In this document: piece after piece, positions 1-27,555 of the stretch
Position numbering within the stretch: the first letter of the stretch is position 1
How the letters are laid out: every line of letters begins with the position of its first letter
IMG/VR virus record: IMGVR_UViG_3300027861_000157
Span: 1 to 27,917 of that record
Strand: one strand, 5' to 3'
DNA from: a virus
Length of the DNA stretch: 27,917 nucleotides
Position numbers and translations under genes: made by a program
The notes under the pieces: model-generated
The model's database searches: none
Seen by the model: only the letters and a program-made list of their open reading frames with translations
Told to the model about the DNA's origin: nothing

Positions 1-150
1 TTGCTTCACAGATTCAAGACAAATAGCTTCCGTCTGATCTTTGACGTATTGAAGTGCGTATCCGTCTTGCTTCACAGCTTCAAGACAAATAGCTTCCGTC
101 TGATCTTTGACGTATTGAAGTGCGTCTCCGTCTTGCTTCACAGCTTCAAG
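1..150. repeat. 66-bp coding tandem repeat
   Basis: The unit starting ttgcttcacag repeats at positions 1, 67 and 133 (third copy partial, homologous to about 153). Copies differ by only a few bases (for example gattcaag/gcttcaag and gcgtatcc/gcgtctcc). Each unit encodes 22 residues on the minus strand. The array continues beyond the window. Confidence 0.9.
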
Positions 151-207
151 ACTCTCTACCTCTGTAAAATACTTGTAACTCTCGTTCTTCATCTTACGTA
201 AATTCAT
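1..207 (-). CDS. DUF4116-like repeat protein (5' part, runs off left edge)
   Basis: The reading frame opens at ATG 207-205, behind a strong Shine-Dalgarno (AAGGAGGA, about 213-221), and stays open to the window edge, giving 69 codons of a longer gene. After a short N-terminus (MNLRKMKNESYKYFTEVES) it consists of 22-residue repeats of the type LEAVKQDGDALQYVKDQTEA-IC. Two full copies and the start of a third are visible. This matches the DUF4116 repeat seen in phage and bacterial proteins; its function is unknown. The DNA repeat is 66 bp (units starting near 1, 67 and 133) and nearly identical between copies, so unit number may vary by slippage or recombination. It has its own promoter and leader hairpin, unlike the tail genes upstream. 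An open frame on the opposite strand is only a by-product of the repeat. Confidence 0.8.
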   Translation of the reverse strand, partial: MNLRKMKNESYKYFTEVESLEAVKQDGDALQYVKDQTEAICLEAVKQDGYALQYVKDQTEAICLESVKQ

Positions 208-8752: not shown

Positions 8753-9265
8753 CTACTCCTCAATCGTAAAAGTGAAATCGCCACCTGTGCCTATTACACT
8801 CATATCCGTAACCGAATCCGGTAAGTCGTAAACATATTCAGGAAACTTCTCTACTGTAGATTCATTCCCTACCGCGTCTACCGCTTGAACTCTAAAGAAA
8901 TGCCATCCCTCTACGCAAGCTAATGGAATTCTTTGCGAAAGAAAAGCTACAGATGTATTCTGAGATGCGTTATATACTAATCTTTCAGCCTCACCGGGAG
9001 GCGTTTGGTATATCGCGTAATAGTCAGCATCCGCTACAGGTTGCCAAATAATCAACGGGTGTAATTGCGGCTCTTTGTATGCTGTAAACTCTTCGTCGTG
9101 AACTTCTAACGCTACCACATCTTCGGGAGCGTAGTTTATATCCGAGCCATCGGTTGACTGTTGAAGAAATACACCGTCCGTAGCTACGAATCCATCACCC
9201 GAATACGATACCCGTACTCCTGATTGATTAGCCGCTTCATAATTGGTGACTTCAATACCAGCCAT
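8753..9265 (-). CDS. Fn3-like tail protein, 170 aa
   Basis: Starts in a TAATG overlap with the stop of the 239-aa gene. Residues about 70-145 resemble a fibronectin type III domain: HPLIIWQPVADADYYAIYQ, then a central strand, then FFRVQAVDAVGNES, the usual Fn3 G-strand ending. It is followed by a DLPDSVTDMSV linker. Such domains decorate phage tail proteins and may mediate weak surface binding. Its role here as a tail-tip component is inferred from domain and position. Confidence 0.65.
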   Translation of the reverse strand: MAGIEVTNYEAANQSGVRVSYSGDGFVATDGVFLQQSTDGSDINYAPEDVVALEVHDEEFTAYKEPQLHPLIIWQPVADADYYAIYQTPPGEAERLVYNASQNTSVAFLSQRIPLACVEGWHFFRVQAVDAVGNESTVEKFPEYVYDLPDSVTDMSVIGTGGDFTFTIEE

Positions 9266-9984
9266 TATGCCGTTTCCTCAATTTCATCCGTCCATGTATT
9301 CGGTGCCGTGTTCTTAAACTCTGTTGCGCTACCGTATTGGTAAGTCCAACTGATAGTAAAACGCTGCTCTCCTGACTCCTGATACCGTGGGCTTTTTGTT
9401 ATCCGTGGATTCTCTTCCATCTCCTGCCCCGGAAATAGCTTGCCCGGTGGTACAGGGTAGTTTGTTTTCGCAGTTGCGCTTCCGCTCTGTGTCGCTCTGT
9501 AGATTGTCTTGGCATTCGTCTGGTATTTCTTCGGAGTGCTTGAAATCGTCTCCATGAAAATATGCCTAGCACCACCACCGTAAAACGTAAGCGTCTCTTG
9601 AAAGCTTACAAGCTCATCAGACTTGACAATATCAGCGTAACCCGTTACCGTTAATTCTATAGTGCGTTGGTTTGCGTATTCCGCGCCTGTGCCTTTTGGG
9701 TATCCGATGGTTTGCGTATGACAATTCGTTACTTCATGTGCGCTCTTAGTTGTTCCGTTGTTGTTGTATAGCGTCAAGGTTCCTTCGGGTACAGATAAGG
9801 CGGTTACAAGAGCATCAATTCCGGTAGTAATGTCAGCCTGTGAATTAGCCTGAATTACCGTGGTGATTTGCCATGTCTGCTCTGCCTTGTCGGGTCTGCC
9901 GCGTGAATCAAATACAGTGCTTGTGCTAATCTGCATCGCGGTTGTAGATTCGTTGAATGAGTATGATTCGTATTTTAACTTCAT
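9265..9984 (-). CDS. Tail protein following the tape measure (Dit-like position), 239 aa
   Basis: Begins MKLKYESYSFNESTTAMQIS, the same first 40 or so residues as the chimeric gene upstream, but continues into its own body (TTVIQANSQADITTGIDALV...). It has a beta-rich composition and ends DEIEETA. In siphovirus gene order the gene after the tape measure usually encodes a distal-tail or minor tail protein, which is the likely role. The start codon is immediately preceded by the end of the chimeric gene, and its 5' end is part of a 296-bp direct repeat. Confidence 0.65.
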   Translation of the reverse strand: MKLKYESYSFNESTTAMQISTSTVFDSRGRPDKAEQTWQITTVIQANSQADITTGIDALVTALSVPEGTLTLYNNNGTTKSAHEVTNCHTQTIGYPKGTGAEYANQRTIELTVTGYADIVKSDELVSFQETLTFYGGGARHIFMETISSTPKKYQTNAKTIYRATQSGSATAKTNYPVPPGKLFPGQEMEENPRITKSPRYQESGEQRFTISWTYQYGSATEFKNTAPNTWTDEIEETA

Positions 9985-10158
9985 CTATCCTACCCTCTGT
10001 AGTCTTGCCTGATTCTTCTTTTCAAGTTCGCCTTTAATCCCCTGCTCTATAGCATCGGCTGCACCATCAGCGGCTTGATTCATTTGATCGCCAAGATTAA
10101 CACCCCTAGCGCGTTGACGGGCAATGCCAGCACTAAACGCTTCCGTTCCTCTATCTTC
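9863..10158 (-). repeat. 296-bp direct repeat, copy 1
   Basis: Nearly identical to 10448-10743 at a constant offset of 585 bp. It spans the last residues of the chimeric gene, the TAG stop and the first 40 codons of the 239-aa gene. The differences I see are few: three near 9889-9898 (T/C, C/G, A/C) and single ones near 10004 and in the ctatcttc/ctgtcttc end. Confidence 0.9.
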
Positions 10159-10569
10159 ACCCATTGAAGAAAGTACAGACTCAGGCGAAATCCCGGTAAC
10201 TGCGGAAAACACATCACCCGACGTGCCAAGTACGGACCCTATTCCCTTTCCAAGAGAATAGAATGCGCCCGGTATCTTCAACGCCCACTCAGCGATGGTT
10301 TTTGCGTACCCAGCAGCACTCTTTAATCCCTCAACAAACTCCCTGTTGTTTTTTACAAATGTTTCAACGCCAGCGTTAACACCTTCGAATGCTTTCCCGA
10401 ACTCTTCAACGACTTTAGTTGCTGTCGGCAAAAACTTAGTGCCGATAGTGATTTGCCATGTCTGCTCTGTCTTGTCCGGTCTGACGCGTGAATCAAATAC
10501 AGTGCTTGTGCTAATCTGCATCGCGGTTGTAGATTCGTTGAATGAGTATGATTCGTATTTTAACTTCAT
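9985..10569 (-). CDS. Chimeric gene: start of the next tail gene fused to a second tape-measure C-terminus, 194 aa
   Basis: Residues 1-40 match the N-terminus of the downstream 239-aa tail protein, with VRPDKTEQ in place of GRPDKAEQ. From residue 42 (IGTKFLPTATKVVEEFGK) the sequence is homologous to the tape-measure C-terminus. The middle (about 80 residues) has diverged, while the last 56 residues (from EDRGTEAFSAG to LQRVG) are identical to the tape measure. The frame is intact and keeps the duplicated context of the 239-aa gene's start. This looks like a tandem duplication of the tape-measure/tail-gene junction whose copies now carry different inner segments. It could be a functional alternative C-terminus, a non-functional relic, or an assembly join of strain variants. 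Confidence 0.75.
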   Translation of the reverse strand: MKLKYESYSFNESTTAMQISTSTVFDSRVRPDKTEQTWQITIGTKFLPTATKVVEEFGKAFEGVNAGVETFVKNNREFVEGLKSAAGYAKTIAEWALKIPGAFYSLGKGIGSVLGTSGDVFSAVTGISPESVLSSMGEDRGTEAFSAGIARQRARGVNLGDQMNQAADGAADAIEQGIKGELEKKNQARLQRVG

Positions 10570-10743
10570 CTATCCTACCCTCTGTAGTCGTGCCTGATTC
10601 TTCTTTTCAAGTTCGCCTTTAATCCCCTGCTCTATAGCATCGGCTGCACCATCAGCGGCTTGATTCATTTGATCGCCAAGATTAACACCCCTAGCGCGTT
10701 GACGGGCAATGCCAGCACTAAACGCTTCCGTTCCTCTGTCTTC
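10448..10743 (-). repeat. 296-bp direct repeat, copy 2
   Basis: Partner of 9863-10158. It spans the tape-measure 3' end, its stop and the first 40 codons of the chimeric gene. A second homologous pair of about 56 bp with two mismatches (10392-10447 and 10956-11011, offset 564) bounds the other side of the duplicated unit. Between the two pairs the inner segments are diverged and differ by 21 bp. Confidence 0.9.
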
Positions 10744-12036
10744 CGCTCCAAAACCTAGGGCAGCGTCAGCAACAACACCGACAGCGGCTGTTGTTAATTG
10801 GGTAGCAAACTTAGATGACTTATAAAGCCACTCTGGGACAAGTAAAGCCCACTCGACCATTTCCTTCAATAGAGATACAGCACCCTTTAGACCTTCGATA
10901 AATTCGGAATTCTCACTATAGAACTCAGCACCACCAGCGGCAACCTCTCCCATTACTTTCCCGAACTCTTCAACGGCTTTAATTGCTGTCGGCAAAAACT
11001 TAGTGCCGATATCTACACTGAGAACTTTCAACTTGTTAAGCTCTTTGTTGAACTTAAAAGCGTCTGAATCTGCAACAGTTCTAAACGCATCGCCTGAAGC
11101 TCCTGTTGATTTCGTTAGAGCATCTTGAATAGACGCGAACTCTTCAGCCTGTTCACCAGCTAGACCTAGAACAGCGGTAAGACCACGAACATTAGGGAAG
11201 AGATTCGCCATCGCATCTGTATCGCCGTCTGTCTTCTCTTTAATATCAGCAAGGAAGTTTAGAAAGCCCTTACTCTTTAGCGCGGTAGATGATAGCTCAA
11301 TACCGTATTGCTGTGCCGCCGCCTTTGCATTTTCCGAAGGTAGCAAAACAGACGTAAGCGCATTCTTTAAGAACGTAGCAGCATTCGCCGTATTAATACC
11401 GCCCTTAGTTAGTGTCGCGGTTGCCGCAAACAAGTCCTCAAGTGACACTTCCAACTCAGCCGCAAACGGTAATACTTGCCCCATGTTCTGGGCAAGTTCC
11501 GACATTGTGGTTTTACCCTTTTTGACCGTCTCAAACATAATATCCGAGATACGATCAACACCACCAGCCGCTTCGCCGTAAGAGTTCAAAACATTAGTAA
11601 GAACGTCAACAGCTTCCGAAGTAGAAGCAACGCCACCAATCGCCGCCTTGGTTGCAGTACCTAGGAACTCCATCGCATCGGCTGCATCAACACCAGCGGA
11701 TACAGCTTGATAAAGTGCCTTCGCTAACTCTTGTGGACCCTTGCCAGTCTCTTTCGATAGTTGCAATATTTCATCATTAAATACTCCCAGTTCCTTATTT
11801 GACACATCAATGATCGTAGCAACTTCAGCCATTGCCTCACCGAATGCTACAGCGTCAAAAGTGGCTTTAGTTAATGCGGCACCAATAACAAAAGCACCGC
11901 GAGAGAACGCTTGAAATGCACCTGTAGCTAACCGTTTCACGTTCTTCATGGATAGCTGCAAGTTGGCAATCTGGGATATACCCTTCTTGCCTACTTTCGC
12001 GTTTAGTTCAATACGAACAGCTTTAGTAATTGCCAT
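10570..12036 (-). CDS. Tail tape measure protein (TP901-1 family), 488 aa
   Basis: N-terminal core typical of TP901-type tape measures: hydrophobic helix AFSRGAFVIGAALTKATFD (residues about 43-61), FGEAMAEVATIIDVSNKEL, ELAKALYQAVSAGVDAADA and FLGTATKAAIGGVASTSEA. These are followed by the FPNVRGLTAVLGLAGEQAE segment. The protein sets tail length and is ejected with DNA. It starts inside the 3' end of the chaperone T-frame (14-bp overlap), so translation is probably coupled. At 488 residues it is a short tape measure. Its C-terminus from IGTKFLPTAIKAVEEFGK exists in a second, diverged version just downstream. Confidence 0.9.
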   Translation of the reverse strand: MAITKAVRIELNAKVGKKGISQIANLQLSMKNVKRLATGAFQAFSRGAFVIGAALTKATFDAVAFGEAMAEVATIIDVSNKELGVFNDEILQLSKETGKGPQELAKALYQAVSAGVDAADAMEFLGTATKAAIGGVASTSEAVDVLTNVLNSYGEAAGGVDRISDIMFETVKKGKTTMSELAQNMGQVLPFAAELEVSLEDLFAATATLTKGGINTANAATFLKNALTSVLLPSENAKAAAQQYGIELSSTALKSKGFLNFLADIKEKTDGDTDAMANLFPNVRGLTAVLGLAGEQAEEFASIQDALTKSTGASGDAFRTVADSDAFKFNKELNKLKVLSVDIGTKFLPTAIKAVEEFGKVMGEVAAGGAEFYSENSEFIEGLKGAVSLLKEMVEWALLVPEWLYKSSKFATQLTTAAVGVVADAALGFGAEDRGTEAFSAGIARQRARGVNLGDQMNQAADGAADAIEQGIKGELEKKNQARLQRVG

Positions 12037-16137: not shown

Positions 16138-16742
16138 TAGCTCTTTTCGGATTTCTCCAACGCGCCAACGGATTTTAGGTCTAGGTATCGCTCCTCGATT
16201 GCGTCCGCTTGAAGATTCTCCAACGCCTCTTTCTTGATTGCTTCGCCAGAATTCGGTACTTTGCTTGCAGCTACAATCAGTGTATTCACAAGCTCTCTCT
16301 CTTCGGATAGATTCTCGTTTGCCTCTTGCATCCTGTCGATTGATTTGTCCACTATCCCCTCTGCGAATTCTTTGTCTTCCTTCTCTTCGTTCCGTTGCTT
16401 GCGAAAGAATCTGGCAGCACCTCCCGCTAATGCAAGTAGTGCTAACAGTCCAGCGTTTGCCGTGTCTGCATACTCGCCCATAAAAGGAGTAGCTATCTTA
16501 ACCGCCGCTTGTGCTGCTGTTGCTCCTTGGCTGACCTGTGTTGCAATCGCCTCGCCCTTGGTAGCCGTCGCATCGCTAATGATTTCAATGTCTGCAACGT
16601 CCTCAATAACCGTCACAACATCACTTGCCGCGCTTGCTACAGGTGCCGCACCGTCTGCCGTCCTTTTAGAAAGCATATCAAAATTGAAGTCACCGCAACC
16701 ACCAAAACAAACCAATGCCGCGATTAGAATAAACTTCTTCAT
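16137..16742 (-). CDS. Phage-encoded lipoprotein with internal membrane segment, 201 aa
   Basis: The N-terminus MKKFILIAALVCFGGCGDFN is a lipoprotein signal peptide with lipobox FGGC (Cys16). Residues about 95-113 (ANAGLLALLALAGGAARFF) are a hydrophobic segment followed by RKQRNEEKEDK, and then a long charged helical region to the C-terminus. The start overlaps the stop of the gp10/gpG-like gene. Its site, inside the connector and tail-terminator gene block, is unusual. Similar phage proteins with a lipobox plus one late hydrophobic segment are of unknown function. Superinfection exclusion, envelope penetration or holin-like activity are all possible. Confidence 0.7.
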   Translation of the reverse strand: MKKFILIAALVCFGGCGDFNFDMLSKRTADGAAPVASAASDVVTVIEDVADIEIISDATATKGEAIATQVSQGATAAQAAVKIATPFMGEYADTANAGLLALLALAGGAARFFRKQRNEEKEDKEFAEGIVDKSIDRMQEANENLSEERELVNTLIVAASKVPNSGEAIKKEALENLQADAIEERYLDLKSVGALEKSEKS

Positions 16743-17410
16743 CCTGTCCTCCCTCTTAATCTCATCTTCTCGTAGTAATCAGCGTATGCCGATTCTGTAA
16801 ATCTTTCGTCTTCTTTTGTGATACCTAAGATTGTACGCGCAGGGACTCTCTTCCCTTTGTACGTTCCACCGTTTTGTAGCTTCTCAATCCACTGAGTACC
16901 GGGTGTATATCCGTAGCTAAATGAGGTTTTGCTTGTTCGTGTTGATCGACCGGGAGTGCTTAGAAACTTCCATATCTGACGCTTACGACCAATATATCCG
17001 CGCTTTTCCGCTTCACCCTGTCCTCTTGCTGTTGCTAGTACAAGCGGTTTTCTATCAGGCTTCGAAGGTGGTCCATATTTCAATCGATACCTACGCGCTG
17101 CCTTCTTGCCTTTCGCCGTCTTAATCGGTTGCCTTAAAGCAGAACCGCCATTATTAACTGACTTAGGGCGTTTCACTCCGTCACCCTTCGAAAGAATCAT
17201 AGGGACATCATCGCCGATTTTCGGGAATGGTTTTGAGTATCCAGCCGCCCAAGGAACACCATTAACATCTACATGCTTCTTCATTCTGTCTTTGGCTTTG
17301 TTCCGATAATACTTTCCGAGCTTATTATGAACAGGACTCCATCCTCGAGAGCCGGGACTCTGCATGTTTTTCAGATACTTATCCAACTGAGGCAATGTCA
17401 TTACAGTCAT
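16739..17410 (-). CDS. Virion morphogenesis / tail completion protein (HK97 gp10 or Mu gpG-like), 223 aa
   Basis: Strongly basic protein with the order typical of this family: an N-terminal helix (LPQLDKYLKNMQ), then NGVPWAAGYSKPFPKIGDD, a long basic middle, and the conserved C-terminal YKGKRVPARTILGITKED followed by a final helix. The motif vPAR-x-iLGi-x-x-eD is characteristic of phage virion morphogenesis proteins that work at the head-tail junction. It overlaps both neighbouring genes by 4 bp. At 223 residues it is somewhat long, because of an inserted basic segment of KGKKAARRYRLKYGPPSKPD type. Confidence 0.75.
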   Translation of the reverse strand: MTVMTLPQLDKYLKNMQSPGSRGWSPVHNKLGKYYRNKAKDRMKKHVDVNGVPWAAGYSKPFPKIGDDVPMILSKGDGVKRPKSVNNGGSALRQPIKTAKGKKAARRYRLKYGPPSKPDRKPLVLATARGQGEAEKRGYIGRKRQIWKFLSTPGRSTRTSKTSFSYGYTPGTQWIEKLQNGGTYKGKRVPARTILGITKEDERFTESAYADYYEKMRLRGRTG

Positions 17411-17745
17411 ACAATCTCCGTCACAGGTATCATGTATTCACCTGTGTCAATCTTGTATTCGTAATCTTCCATGTATTTATAAACAATACCCGCCGCTGTT
17501 ATCGTGTCTTTCGCTTCCGGAGTAGCTTGAACCTCACTAAGAATCAAATCCGTCTTCTTAATATAGAAAACCTTCATAACATCACGCAAAAACACACCGT
17601 TTACATCTTGCGTCTCGACTTCCACCTCTGTACGTATAGCTGTAACCTCTACAGAATCAACACCCCGCGTATACGTGACTGTATCGCCGAAGACAGATTG
17701 CCAAGCTGGTAGTGTGGCTTTCGCCGCTACTTCAAATACGCTCAA
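17407..17745 (-). CDS. Head completion / head-tail joining protein, 112 aa
   Basis: Small beta-rich protein (MSVFEVAAKATLPAWQSVFG, TVTYTRGVDSVEVTAIRTEV, VFYIKKTDLIL, IVYKYMEDYEYKIDTGEYMI). Size, composition and position between head genes and the gp10-like gene match phage head-closure or stopper proteins such as lambda gpFII and SPP1 gp16 types. It overlaps the FkbM gene upstream and the gp10-like gene downstream by 4 bp each, so the inserted modification genes are translationally coupled to the connector genes. Confidence 0.65.
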   Translation of the reverse strand: MSVFEVAAKATLPAWQSVFGDTVTYTRGVDSVEVTAIRTEVEVETQDVNGVFLRDVMKVFYIKKTDLILSEVQATPEAKDTITAAGIVYKYMEDYEYKIDTGEYMIPVTEIV

Positions 17746-18290
17746 TGTGTGGCTACCTCAATCTCTATGTCGTATCCGTCCAGTATAGCCATGACCTCTT
17801 CATGTGGCATGGTCTGATCGAACTTATCACCGTGTAGCTCAATATACATCTTGTCAATTAACTTCAACGCGCCGTCTTTGTGCATTTTCTTGATTACTTC
17901 GTATTCCGCGCCTTCAATATCCATCTTGAGAAAAACGTAGTCAGTCTTAGATAGATGATGTAAGCACCAATCGGAGAAATCGAAACAAGGCACATCTACA
18001 GGGATTGAATAATCCAAGTCACCTGTACATTTGTTCAGTAGTACTGTCGCGCTCTGACTGCACGGCTTTTTAGGGTTCATGTAGAAATGAATCTCTCCAT
18101 CATACACCCACGCCGCATCTTCTATAATCTCGATATTCTCAAAGCGATTATTCGTCTTACGCCACATCGGGTCTTGCAGACAATTCAAGCATGGTTCAAT
18201 CGCATAACAAATATCGACCTCATTATGAACAGCCAAATATTCGTAGACCGTCTTCCCGATATGTGCGCCGCAATCTATGTATACGTTCAT
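17742..18290 (-). CDS. FkbM-family SAM-dependent methyltransferase, 182 aa
   Basis: Motif I is YIDCGAHIGKTV (residues 4-15), with the following acidic EP (residues 32-33) for ribose binding. The FkbM signature VFLKMDIEGAEYEVIKKM (residues about 118-135) is present, followed by KMYIELH. These are the conserved parts of class I O-methyltransferases of the FkbM family, which often methylate sugars. The gene overlaps the glycosyltransferase by an ATGA and is followed by another 4-bp overlap. It is short for the family but all core motifs are present. A substrate in the glycan added by the neighbouring enzyme is inferred. Confidence 0.85.
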   Translation of the reverse strand: MNVYIDCGAHIGKTVYEYLAVHNEVDICYAIEPCLNCLQDPMWRKTNNRFENIEIIEDAAWVYDGEIHFYMNPKKPCSQSATVLLNKCTGDLDYSIPVDVPCFDFSDWCLHHLSKTDYVFLKMDIEGAEYEVIKKMHKDGALKLIDKMYIELHGDKFDQTMPHEEVMAILDGYDIEIEVATH

Positions 18291-19006
18291 GCTGGATATG
18301 TCCCATCGTTATGAATAAGGTCTTTATAGCCTCGCATATGCTGAAAGATATTACACTCTTTGTCAATGTCAACTCTAGGATACTCATCTGGAAAAGCAGC
18401 TAACTTAACGCTTGTCTGCTCTGTGCCTCTATATCTTGTAGCAAATATAACATCACGCTCTACAGTAGCTACCTTCTCAAAGAACTCAAGAACGTACTCG
18501 CGCTTGCCTATCCAACATCCTGCGTTCAGGTGCTGATACTTAGTTTTAAACTTAGCCTCAAATACATCGCAGTCATGGAGTGGCTTGCATCTTTTGGGCC
18601 ATGTGCCGTTAGATGCATTAAAAAGCAATTCACAATCGAAATCCAAGAACCGCTTAACAATGTGCGAAGGATGTTCAGTTAGCACAACATCGAAAGCGTC
18701 AAGACCGATAATGTATTCCGCTGTACTCTGACGGGCGAAATCAATGGTCATAAACACCTTGTCGATATTACTCCAACTCTCTTGATCCTTCTTTAATACG
18801 TTTATTTCTGCGCCTAGAGAATCAAGGCTCTTCTCTACGACTGATTTATTGTGATCTGTACTCCAAGTAATCACATCGTAACTAGGAACTTCTACAGCTT
18901 CGGATACAAACTTTGTGCGTACCAGTTCACCCCATAGCGGCAGCCGTCTGGTCTTGCCTGGAGCGTGATACACAATAGGCTCTGAATTTGTACGGACGTT
19001 CTTCAT
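18287..19006 (-). CDS. PLOD/LH3-like glycosyltransferase, 239 aa
   Basis: Start taken at ATG 19006 (MKNVRTNSEP); a GTG three codons upstream is also in frame. The second half matches the glycosyltransferase domain of procollagen-lysine (PLOD/LH3) enzymes. YIIGLDAFDVVL holds the acidic metal/UDP-binding motif (D103, D106). ELLFNASNGTWP, YQHLNAGCWIGKREYV and PRVDIDKECNIFQ (residues about 210-222) follow in family order. It should transfer a sugar from a nucleotide donor. The protein ends at DGTYPA, where many relatives continue into an H-x-NG motif, so the C-terminus may be shortened. Coupling to an FkbM methyltransferase and adjacency to the capsid gene suggest virion glycosylation; that is inference. 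Confidence 0.8.
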   Translation of the reverse strand: MKNVRTNSEPIVYHAPGKTRRLPLWGELVRTKFVSEAVEVPSYDVITWSTDHNKSVVEKSLDSLGAEINVLKKDQESWSNIDKVFMTIDFARQSTAEYIIGLDAFDVVLTEHPSHIVKRFLDFDCELLFNASNGTWPKRCKPLHDCDVFEAKFKTKYQHLNAGCWIGKREYVLEFFEKVATVERDVIFATRYRGTEQTSVKLAAFPDEYPRVDIDKECNIFQHMRGYKDLIHNDGTYPA

Positions 19007-19013
19007 AAGATGC

Positions 19014-19037
19014 ACCCCCCACCCGAAAGCGGGGGGT
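19014..19037 (-). terminator. Strong GC hairpin after the capsid gene, overlapping the glycosyltransferase ribosome site
   Basis: A 9-bp stem (arms 19014-19020 and 19031-19037, extended by a G-U and a C-G pair in the minus-strand RNA) closes a 6-nt or shorter loop. There is no U-tract, so it may be a processing or RNA-stability element rather than a full terminator. Its 3' arm is a G-run that is also the only Shine-Dalgarno-like sequence for the next gene. Confidence 0.6.
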
Positions 19038-20021: not shown

Positions 20022-20405
20022 TTAAGAAATATCGTCATTGCCGCCGCGAATCGGGCAAACTTCAATGATGTCATCAGCAGCAGTAGCCGCTTCAAGCGCA
20101 ACACCAACAACGGTCAACGAAGTAGTCACATCATCCACTTCACCGTCTGCCATAGTGTAAACAACTGCTCCCTTAGCAAACGCACCAGTCGCAATACACT
20201 TCACGGTTCCAGTTCCCGCAAGCGTCACCGCAACAACGCCACCAGAAACAGCCGCTTGCTGCGCGTGTCCGACATATGTATTATCTTCGGACGCAACGCC
20301 ACCAGTAGCAACAGCAACACCAGCGACAAGTTTCACCGCCGCATACTGCTTAATCGTGCCACCAGCGATAAGGTTAATAGGCGTTCCAGCCTGTTGAGTA
20401 GCCAT
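20022..20405 (-). CDS. Capsid decoration protein (DUF2190-like), 127 aa
   Basis: Small Ala/Val/Gly-rich beta protein, MATQQAGTPINLIAGGTIKQ, AAVKLVAGVAVATGG, GHAQQAAVSGGVVAV and GTVKCIATGAFAKGA, the pattern of DUF2190 and related head-decoration proteins. The start overlaps the scaffold stop (TAATG) and the gene precedes the major capsid gene, as lambda D precedes E. It should bind the outside of the shell after expansion (family knowledge). Confidence 0.8.
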   Translation of the reverse strand: MATQQAGTPINLIAGGTIKQYAAVKLVAGVAVATGGVASEDNTYVGHAQQAAVSGGVVAVTLAGTGTVKCIATGAFAKGAVVYTMADGEVDDVTTSLTVVGVALEAATAADDIIEVCPIRGGNDDIS

Positions 20406-23236: not shown

Positions 23237-23253
23237 GTAATCTCCAAGGACTA

Positions 23254-23293
23254 AAAGAAAACGCCACTCAGGTATTCAGCCCTGAATGGCGTT
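23254..23293 (-). terminator. Intrinsic terminator upstream of the gpW-like gene
   Basis: Minus-strand RNA: 13-bp stem (arms 23281-23293 and 23260-23272, one G-U pair), 8-nt loop, then UUCUUUU. The wobble pair is an A-C mismatch in the other orientation, favouring the minus strand. Confidence 0.75.
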
Positions 23294-23354
23294 CTCTCCG
23301 AAGTCTGGTAGAAGGGGGATCAATCCCAGCTATTCAGCCCGAAAACTTAGTTTT

Positions 23355-23405
23355 AAAAAAAGACGGCGGTAACGATCCTATCTTTAATCTTGCGTGAGAA
23401 CCGCC
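23355..23405 (-). terminator. Intrinsic terminator ending the structured RNA
   Basis: Minus-strand RNA: GGCGGU (23405-23400) pairs with ACCGCC (23370-23365) across a 29-nt loop, followed by GUC and seven U (to 23355). The long loop makes it less certain than the second terminator 60 bp further on. Confidence 0.6.
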
Positions 23406-23547
23406 TAACTACATAAACGCTTTCGCGTCGAGCAAGGGATACTATCCCAAGTGGGGTTACAAAAACACCGGGAATGATGATCGGACTACTTATTTCGTCT
23501 GCGGCGTTTCATGCCTTCGCATCTATCACCCCCGGCAGGAGGTACTT
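23355..23547 (-). ncRNA. Structured phage RNA of about 190 nt with its own promoter and terminator
   Basis: Transcription from the promoter at 23554-23581 would start near 23547. About 10 nt later a 13-bp stem begins (arms 23525-23537 and 23466-23478; four G-U pairs in the minus strand that would be A-C mismatches in the plus strand). It is followed by a hairpin GGGAU-AGU-AUCCC (23448-23436), a GNRA tetraloop hairpin ACGC-GAAA-GCGU (23428-23417) and the terminator. No protein ORF of note lies inside. It matches no RNA family I know (it is not tmRNA or tRNA). It could be a small regulatory RNA or a cis-acting leader of the head operon. Confidence 0.6.
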
Positions 23548-23553
23548 ACTATA

Positions 23554-23581
23554 AGTGTACTCACTTTTTAGCGTTTGTCAA
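23554..23581 (-). promoter_or_regulatory. Sigma70-type promoter for the structured RNA / head operon
   Basis: Minus strand -35 TTGACA (23581-23576), 16-bp spacer, -10 TACACT (23559-23554). A TATAGT just downstream is too far from the -35 box to pair with it. Confidence 0.75.
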
Positions 23582-23610
23582 TACAGTGTATGCTATGGGT
23601 GCTAACGTAA

Positions 23611-26592: not shown

Positions 26593-26719
26593 TCCCCCTC
26601 CTTCGGTGGCTTAGGCGCGTACCAACTTTTAACGCAAGCCAACCCAAAGTCAATACCGCAGCATGACTTGTCTTCTCGATTTTATCAACGCATTCCTTCG
26701 CCTCTTTACTTACATTCAT
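26585..26719 (-). CDS. 44-aa ORF coupled to the radical SAM gene
   Basis: ATG 26719 overlaps the TGA of the radical SAM gene, and its ribosome site (GGAGGAATGAGAT) lies within that gene's last codons. The product starts MNVSKEAKECVDKIEKTSHA and continues AVLTLGWLALKVGTRLSHRR to end RGNE. It has a short hydrophobic helix and a basic tail. It overlaps the next gene by 8 bp. Unknown function. Confidence 0.5.
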   Translation of the reverse strand: MNVSKEAKECVDKIEKTSHAAVLTLGWLALKVGTRLSHRRRGNE

Positions 26720-27555
26720 ATCTCATTCCTCCCGTTATAATCGCACTTGAAATCCATGCAATACTTACTGCAAATCGGATCGTCATATGATGAGTGTGTA
26801 CTATACCACTCGTCCCTTTCATCCATCATTTCAGAACCAAACTCCCCAATAGGATCACCTCCCTCGCGTATATATACAGCACACGGGTAATGATGAATAC
26901 CTTTAATAGAAACGTCATCAAGAGCAAGAAAACATTTGTCTGATTTCAATGTGCCGCGCATCCCCAGCCCCTTAGAAAACCTTTTTACGCGATACGACAT
27001 AATCTCATGTTCCGGCATATCAATTAAACCATCAATTACGGATGACTCGCTTTGGCTAATTGTTCCGATCTTAATATCAGACACACCCAGATCAGAAATA
27101 AATTTCAGCATCTCATTACTGCTATCGACTGTTCCTATCTGAACGTCGGCACCGATTCCGACTAAAAACTCAATGACACTAATCACGTATGCATTTTTAT
27201 CATGGAGAGATATAGCAAAAGACCTACACCCAGCTTTAAAAATTTCCTCATACAGACCAATATCCGCCGAACCATTTGTAGACATCCTGACAGTCATTCT
27301 ATTCGCAGCACTTACAATATCAACTATGTCATCCCGAACAGTAGGCTCTCCACCTGTAATATGGTAGAACTTACACCCCCTAGACTCAAGGTATTTTATA
27401 ACATCAAGTATAAATGAGAGCGGCTGATCGTCTGAACTATCTACCGAATTACAAAACGAGCAGTTAAAATTGCACTTACTGGTTACGAGGTGCTCGCAAT
27501 AATATATACCAAGGTGACCGTCTCTATCCTTAGTCATTCCATGAAACCCACCCAT
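26716..27555 (-). CDS. Radical SAM protein, 279 aa
   Basis: Residues 28-35 CNFNCSFC give the radical SAM CxxxCxxC motif for a [4Fe-4S] cluster. HITGGEP (residues 65-71) is the SAM-binding GGE motif, and STNG (92-95) and an AISLHDK strand follow as expected. The C-terminus has a further cysteine group CSKYCMDFKC (residues 262-271) and an isolated PCAVYIREGG, suggesting a SPASM/twitch-like auxiliary cluster site. It is probably an oxygen-sensitive enzyme acting on a protein, peptide or nucleotide; QueE is less likely because its N-terminal signature is missing. The gene sits upstream of the terminase in the same operon. Confidence 0.85.
   Translation of the reverse strand: MGGFHGMTKDRDGHLGIYYCEHLVTSKCNFNCSFCNSVDSSDDQPLSFILDVIKYLESRGCKFYHITGGEPTVRDDIVDIVSAANRMTVRMSTNGSADIGLYEEIFKAGCRSFAISLHDKNAYVISVIEFLVGIGADVQIGTVDSSNEMLKFISDLGVSDIKIGTISQSESSVIDGLIDMPEHEIMSYRVKRFSKGLGMRGTLKSDKCFLALDDVSIKGIHHYPCAVYIREGGDPIGEFGSEMMDERDEWYSTHSSYDDPICSKYCMDFKCDYNGRNEI

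What the first reader, a model, noticed from the sequence alone, without database searches (positions are those of the whole stretch)
17742..19037. Glycosyltransferase-methyltransferase cassette directly after the capsid gene
A PLOD/LH3-like glycosyltransferase and an FkbM methyltransferase lie between the major capsid gene and the connector genes, joined to each other and to the next gene by 4-bp overlaps. PLOD-type enzymes glycosylate hydroxylysine in collagen, and FkbM enzymes often cap sugars by O-methylation. Co-expression with capsid proteins suggests a phage-encoded system that glycosylates and methylates virion proteins, perhaps against host or environmental recognition. The alternative is modification of the host surface. 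The substrate is not visible in the sequence.
Basis: partly seen in the sequence, partly recalled or inferred. Interest (0 to 1): 0.8.

Follow-up and report, generated by a model that had tools for sequence, protein, structure and literature searches.

The report
Phage capsid-linked sugar-transfer and methylation cassette
Next to its capsid gene this uncultured phage carries a sugar-transferring enzyme, related to the human enzyme that sugar-coats collagen but with its active-site parts in a rearranged order, followed by a methylating enzyme; distant relatives keep the same pair in the same place, so the phage probably decorates its own particle with methylated sugar.

Summary
Between the major capsid gene (MCP) and the head-tail joining gene lie a PLOD/LH3-type glycosyltransferase (GT, 18287-19006) and an FkbM methyltransferase (MT, 17742-18290), with 4-bp overlaps. 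(1) The cassette is old and capsid-linked. GT follows MCP directly in six relatives (MCP 36-88% identical). MT follows in the four whose records reach it and is fused to GT in a fifth; the sixth breaks off inside GT. Three relatives add a family-2 GT. All 15 sister-group records tested lack both genes. Capsid-linked GTs form one clade and are under purifying selection. (2) The GT has the LH3 fold (Z 17.1), but its catalytic His-x-x-G motif, C-terminal in LH3 and R699, is N-terminal here: a circular permutation by motif order, shared by about 20 viral GTs. The substrate remains unknown. Best explanation: late-expressed glycosylation and O-methylation of a virion protein (0.55); host-surface modification is the main rival. 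New variant of a known kind.

The parts
18287..19006 (-). GT: PLOD/LH3-type GT-A glycosyltransferase with permuted order. N-terminal H14-x-x-G17 motif, then K83, D103xxD106, W136, N161, E196-Q197
   Evidence: Pfam GT_PLOD 8.7e-11; profile match to LH3 4.2e-14 and R699 1.1e-13; AF2 pLDDT 84.4, pTM 0.87; LH3 Z 17.1; residue positions
17742..18290 (-). MT: FkbM-family SAM-dependent methyltransferase (DCGAHIGKT at residue 6, KMDIEGAE at residue 122)
   Evidence: PF05050 1.3e-15; TIGR01444 2.9e-20; AF2 pLDDT 89.4; best solved match FkbM 2py6 Z 9.4
19014..19037 (-). 10-bp GC-rich hairpin with UUCG loop between MCP stop and GT start. Its 3' arm holds GGGGGG, a possible Shine-Dalgarno of GT; probable attenuator or mRNA-stabilising element (inferred)
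   Evidence: -24.5 kcal/mol, z -4.4, 0 of 200 shuffles as stable; pairing kept in L002 with three substitutions; strong hairpin in the same place in L008, L009, L010, L089, L113
19051..20010 (-). Major capsid protein, immediately upstream
   Evidence: phrog_1005 4.8e-30
20022..20405 (-). Capsid cement (decoration) protein, candidate substrate
   Evidence: PF09956 2.5e-06
17407..17745 (-). Head-tail joining protein, downstream neighbour
   Evidence: PF25138 5.7e-10
16739..17410 (-). Tail completion/neck protein, next downstream gene
   Evidence: phrog_26 3.4e-4

Best explanation
A two-gene virion-decorating cassette in the head operon. GT, a single-domain, Mn-dependent GT-A enzyme of the LH3/R699 type whose polypeptide is circularly permuted relative to LH3, transfers a sugar from a UDP-sugar to a side chain, or to a host- or phage-added first sugar, of a protein made at the same time, most likely a head protein such as the MCP or cement protein. 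MT then O-methylates that sugar with SAM, capping it. Some relatives extend the glycan with a family-2 GT and a second methyltransferase. A hairpin after MCP keeps the enzymes at catalytic levels. The likely benefit is a changed particle surface (adsorption to surroundings, stability, recognition). Shown: enzyme families, intact catalytic residues, motif order, conserved position, co-presence and co-absence of GT and MT, GT-MT fusion in one relative, purifying selection, hairpin. Inferred: substrate, donor sugar, metal use, order of reactions, 3D placement of the N-terminal His, expression level, benefit.
For: Same-site conservation with MCP in L002, L008, L009, L010, L089 and L113. GT and MT co-occur in 3 of 3 cassette records and are both absent from 15 of 15 other MCP-relative records searched whole. 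L089 has GT and FkbM in one ORF, and L011 has GT fused to Methyltransf_24. Cassette phages lie in one MCP clade, 100/100; their GTs form one clade, 99/99, with L008/L009/L113 grouped in both trees. dN/dS 0.072 for GT against 0.118 for MCP. Catalytic residues of R699 (PMC11838735: K62, D83, D86, W118, N138, D163/Q164, H216, K222) map to K83, D103, D106, W136, N161, E196/Q197, H14, R20. LH3 fold Z 17.1, next family Z 11.8. No membrane segment by hydropathy: maximum 19-residue mean 0.94 in GT, 0.66 in MT, as expected for cytosolic acceptors. Phage capsid glycosylation is known from Che8-type mycobacteriophages (cited in PMC11256854, PMC12619734).
Against: No substrate is visible. LH3-type enzymes extend an existing sugar, and in window and L010 no second GT lies in the cassette (L089 ends inside MT), so what primes the glycan is unknown. 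Position in the head operon also fits a 'moron' with another role. Glu114 of R699 is lost, so the acceptor differs from galactosyl-hydroxylysine. L090, sister to L089 on the MCP tree, has a different small gene after MCP (its record then ends). No mass spectrometry exists.
Confidence: 0.55

Rival explanations
1. Host-surface modification: GT and MT alter a host envelope glycan (LPS, S-layer, capsule) late in infection, for example to block superinfection or to stop new virions sticking to debris; the capsid position is only a convenient late-expressed site.
For: GT and FkbM enzymes are common in polysaccharide clusters (own knowledge); more distant permuted GTs (L195, L201) sit among sugar-nucleotide and polysaccharide-type genes. 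Temperate phages are known to convert serotype with glycosyltransferases (cited in PMC12619734).
Against: No transmembrane segment in GT or MT; the cassette is locked to the MCP/head-tail site across an MCP clade with members only 36-44% identical to the window, and is absent from the sister clade.
Confidence: 0.22
2. The GT makes a small molecule (a disaccharide like R699's kojibiose, or a glycosylated metabolite) that MT methylates; neither acts on the virion.
For: R699 makes kojibiose from free glucose (PMC11838735); the acceptor-binding Glu114 is replaced here.
Against: Does not explain strict linkage to capsid genes and co-inheritance with them.
Confidence: 0.08
3. Collagen-like hydroxylysine glycosylation of a phage protein, as in LH3 and as suggested by cyanophage proteins that join GT25, PLOD-GT and 2OG-oxygenase domains beside tail-fibre genes.
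For: GT family relationship.
Against: No 2OG oxygenase (PF13640) in the window or in any of the six capsid-linked relatives' records, but present in normal-order phages (several records are fragments). No Gly-X-Y repeats of five or more units in the window. Glu114 lost.
Confidence: 0.05
4. DNA or nucleotide modification: GT glycosylates a modified base of phage DNA.
For: Phage GTs that modify DNA are known (Pyle et al. 2024, cited in PMC12619734).
Against: Late head-operon position; nearest fold is a protein-glycan transferase; no hypermodified-base pathway gene recognised among the genes annotated in the window.
Confidence: 0.04

Closest known systems
LH3/PLOD3 GT domain (human collagen galactosylhydroxylysyl glucosyltransferase; PDB 6wfv, 6fxr)
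   Same: GT-A fold, Z 17.1 over 185 residues; DxxD, catalytic Lys, Trp, Asn, Asp/Glu-Gln and His-x-x-G motifs present
   Different: His motif and about 37 residues are at the N-terminus instead of the C-terminus; no accessory or lysyl-hydroxylase domain; acceptor Glu replaced by Ser; 20% identity
Mimivirus R699 (PDB 9dyt; PMC9546862, PMC11838735)
   Same: Viral member of the same GT family; most of the active-site positions compared keep an identical or like residue
   Different: R699 has normal order plus a second Rossmann domain and dimerises; here a single permuted domain, E114 to S132, D162 to T195
Cyanophage/roseophage GT25 + PLOD-GT + 2OG-oxygenase proteins (S-CAM9, S-PRM1, CRP-6)
   Same: Phage-encoded PLOD GT domain beside structural genes
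   Different: Normal order, fused to GT25-like and oxygenase-like parts, beside tail-fibre rather than capsid genes
Mycobacteriophage virion glycosylation (Che8, Rita; Freeman et al. 2023, read only through PMC11256854 and PMC12619734)
   Same: Phage-encoded glycosyltransferases thought to glycosylate capsid and tail tube
   Different: In Maravista, an F1 phage of the Che8 group, the GTs lie near the 3' end of the genome rather than after MCP (PMC11256854); enzyme families not compared here
FkbM methyltransferases (PF05050, TIGR01444; PDB 2py6)
   Same: Both profiles above cut-off; best solved fold match 2py6 Z 9.4
   Different: Short single-domain phage form conserved with the capsid-linked GT; substrate unknown

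Membership tests
PLOD/LH3 GT domain (PF25342) | Profile score above curated cut-off | tested here: met
   41.9 bits, cut-off 27
PLOD/LH3 GT domain (PF25342) | GT-A fold closest to LH3/R699 | tested here: met
   13 LH3/R699 rows Z 15.1-17.1, next family Z 11.8
PLOD/LH3 GT domain (PF25342) | Metal and donor site: DxxD, catalytic Lys, His motif, basic residue after His | tested here: met
   D103, D106, K83, H14, R20 by alignment to R699/LH3; H14, K83, D103, D106 invariant in A4
PLOD/LH3 GT domain (PF25342) | Domain order with the His motif C-terminal | tested here: not met
   Second profile alignment pairs query 1-37 with template 209-244, P 0.0024; N-terminal block score 28.6 against 300 column shuffles, maximum 21.5; N-type and C-type mutually exclusive, 21 vs 63 (three C flags are FQHMxG or IHNDG, not the motif). 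It is therefore filed as a permuted relative, not a canonical LH3 GT domain
Collagen galactosylhydroxylysyl glucosyltransferase | Acceptor Glu (R699 E114) | tested here: not met
   S132; Ser/Ala/Cys/Val in the capsid-linked clade
Collagen galactosylhydroxylysyl glucosyltransferase | Lysyl hydroxylase in the same pathway | tested here: inconclusive
   No PF13640 match in 7 records, several of them fragments
FkbM methyltransferase | Profile and SAM motifs | tested here: met
Phage virion glycosylation system | Glycan on virion protein | not testable with these tools
   Needs mass spectrometry of virions
Phage virion glycosylation system | Conserved linkage of GT (and modifying enzymes) to capsid genes | tested here: met
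   Window and six relatives (GT in all seven; MT in all that reach it); 0 of 15 sister-group records

The most novel reading that the evidence does not exclude
A naturally circularly permuted family of LH3-type glycosyltransferases exists in phages and large viruses, and one clade of it, paired or fused with an FkbM methyltransferase, is a dedicated capsid-modifying system that builds an O-methylated glycan on the phage head without hydroxylysine.
Probability: 0.45. Interest if true: 0.75.

Novelty: new variant of a known kind. Interest (0 to 1): 0.62.

Why it matters
Phage virion glycosylation is documented in few phages. A syntenic GT+methyltransferase cassette beside the capsid gene gives a genomic signature with which to find more, and O-methyl capping would be a new twist. 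A circularly permuted LH3-type fold would give a small single-domain model for the human collagen glucosyltransferase and a case of natural permutation through a metal-binding active site. I found no report of it in the papers I could search.

Tried and rejected
Close relatives of GT and MCP by single-protein scans: only L002. MT in annotated phages by tblastn: none. Bacterial or archaeal homologues of GT in 84,980 species genomes by pattern scans: no confirmed relative; this limits but does not exclude a cellular origin. Geometric check of H14 against the metal site: model coordinates are not present in the Python box, so 3D placement stays inferred. Rfam: no match in the window. Several family searches failed on my own coordinate errors and were redone or dropped; a first tree display failed and was redone. 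Freeman et al. 2023 is not held. Literature on permuted GT-A enzymes: two hits by title and abstract, neither about PLOD or LH3; not opened. Literature on FkbM and sugar O-methylation: nothing of use.

Full report
OBSERVATION. The window is a whole IMG/VR record of 27,917 bases. All head genes read leftwards: terminase, portal, protease, cement protein, major capsid protein (MCP), GT, MT, head-tail joining, neck (the protease is named by position and by conservation in relatives, it has no family match). GT is 18287-19006 and MT 17742-18290. The four-base overlaps are ATGA (GT/MT), TTGA (MT/head-tail joining, start codon inferred) and ATGA (next pair).

IDENTITY OF THE ENZYMES. GT matches Pfam GT_PLOD (8.7e-11). 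A profile of nine relatives (A4) finds LH3 and mimivirus R699 among solved structures at 4.2e-14 and 1.1e-13. The AlphaFold model (pLDDT 84.4, pTM 0.87) is closest to LH3 (Z 17.1, rmsd 2.6, 185 residues) and R699 (Z 15.5); the next family, GT6, is at 11.8. MT is FkbM by Pfam and NCBIfam, and its model is closest to FkbM 2py6 (Z 9.4; that Z alone is only modestly above the Rossmann background).

PERMUTED ORDER. In LH3 and R699 the His that contacts the sugar and, in R699, the Lys that binds UDP lie at the C-terminal end of the GT domain, in a motif HGNGPxK (R699 H216 and K222, PMC11838735). Here that motif is at the N-terminus: N3..P10 I V Y H14 A P G17 K T R20. Profile-profile comparison with 74 normal-order domains gives a main alignment (query 27-237 to template 6-215, P 2.4e-27) and a second alignment (query 1-37 to template 209-244, P 0.0024); the following ones are noise, P 0.23 and worse. 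The N-terminal block alone scores 28.6; 300 column shuffles average 10.1 and never exceed 21.5. The same second alignment appears with LH3 (residues 220-241) and R699 (206-226), though each is weak on its own. The structure alignment agrees: model 38-239 pairs with LH3 34-237, leaving the model's first 37 residues and LH3's His-bearing end unpaired. Distant members are clearer: L200 begins MKLRNKITGTWPFITHGNGPSK, close to LH3's RNVAYDTLPIVVHGNGPTK. Across fetched loci 63 GT domains carry the motif C-terminally, 21 N-terminally and 9 were unclassified; no domain carries both real motifs (three extra C-terminal flags are FQHMxG or IHNDG strings). Which order is ancestral is not known, and 3D placement of H14 was not measured.

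ACTIVE SITE. Mapping by the R699 alignment: K62 to K83, D83 to D103, D86 to D106, W118 to W136, N138 to N161, D163-Q164 to E196-Q197, H216 to H14, K222 to R20. E114, which binds the acceptor in R699, is S132 here and Ser/Ala/Cys/Val in the capsid-linked clade. Catalysis should be intact; the acceptor should differ.

CONSERVED CASSETTE. Scans with GT, MCP and MT profiles gave: L002, portal-protease-cement-MCP-GT, record ends in GT; L010, MCP-GT-MT-head-tail joining; L008, MCP-GT-GT2-MT (record ends in MT); L009, MCP-GT-Methyltransf_24-GT2-MT-connectors; L113, MCP-GT-GT2-MT-head-tail joining; L089, MCP then GT and FkbM in one ORF, record ends in the FkbM part. MT ends in EVATH or EEATH in window, L009 and L010. 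L011 has a GT-Methyltransf_24 fusion beside a portal-like gene. Most other MCP relatives go from MCP to head-tail joining or another connector gene, some with one small ORF between. Whole records of 15 of them contain neither GT nor MT, while three cassette controls contain both. On the MCP tree the seven cassette phages plus L090 form one clade at 100/100. L090 has a small unrelated gene after MCP and its record then ends, so its state is unknown. The GT tree makes the capsid-linked GTs one clade at 99/99, and the GT2-bearing trio groups in both trees. Simplest reading: one acquisition, then inheritance with the capsid. dN/dS of GT between window and L002 is 0.072, lower than MCP, cement protein or protease.

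EXPRESSION. Every cassette phage has a strong hairpin between MCP stop and GT start. In the window it is -24.5 kcal/mol, z -4.4; in L002 three substitutions all keep pairing around a UUCG loop; in L089 it is a GC stem followed by TTTTT, an intrinsic terminator by sequence (its shuffles keep base composition only). MCP and enzymes are therefore probably not made in equal amounts. The 3' arm of the window hairpin contains the likely ribosome-binding site of GT, so translation may also be damped (inference).

FUNCTION. Late-operon position, cytosolic enzymes without membrane segments, strict linkage to capsid genes and a GT family that acts on protein-linked sugar point to glycosylation of a virion protein, with MT capping the sugar. 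This is inference. The hydroxylysine route is disfavoured: no 2OG oxygenase was found in any of seven capsid-linked records (several are fragments), and no Gly-X-Y tract of five or more units in the window. Host-surface modification cannot be excluded: more distant permuted GTs lie in polysaccharide-type clusters.

NOVELTY. Phage virion glycosylation, PLOD-type viral GTs (mimivirus R699) and FkbM enzymes are known. The permuted order and the conserved GT-FkbM capsid cassette were not found in the papers searched. I rate it a new variant of a known kind.

Noticed in passing
window 9863-10158 and 10448-10743: 98% identical direct repeat spaced 585 bp: a recent tandem duplication that makes ORF 9985-10569 a chimera of the start of gene 9265-9984 and the end of the tape-measure-like gene 10570-12036. 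Could be real or an assembly artefact.
   Followed up: partly
window 1-152: 66-bp tandem repeat, 2.3 copies, encoding 22-residue repeats (LEAVKQDGYALQYVKDQTEAIC) on the minus strand at the record's end.
   Followed up: no
window 26716-27555 (-): Radical SAM protein (PF04055 4.1e-14) upstream of the terminase; best NCBIfam scores are to MoaA but far below cut-offs. Role in a phage unknown.
   Followed up: partly
L003 3491-5260, L004 2964-4829, L006 3167-5008, L007 3164-5008: Cyanophage/roseophage proteins that fuse a GT25-like domain, a PLOD GT domain and a 2OG oxygenase-like end, next to tail-fibre genes: resembles a whole collagen-type hydroxylation and glycosylation pathway in one polypeptide.
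   Followed up: partly
L200 1393-4163, L205 6592-9402: Permuted PLOD-type GT beside 2OG-oxygenase-like proteins and (L200) a GT25-like protein in other phage records: a second context for the permuted family.
   Followed up: no
L013/L206 and L037/L203 (records of 204 and 380 kb): Permuted GT in large viral records, in L013 fused to an NAD-epimerase-like domain; L037 carries further copies with in-frame stops.
   Followed up: no
window 23237-23610: About 375 bp without an ORF of 60 aa between the small gene after the terminase and the gene before the portal; the matching stretch exists in L002 (about 480-840); no Rfam match.
   Followed up: no
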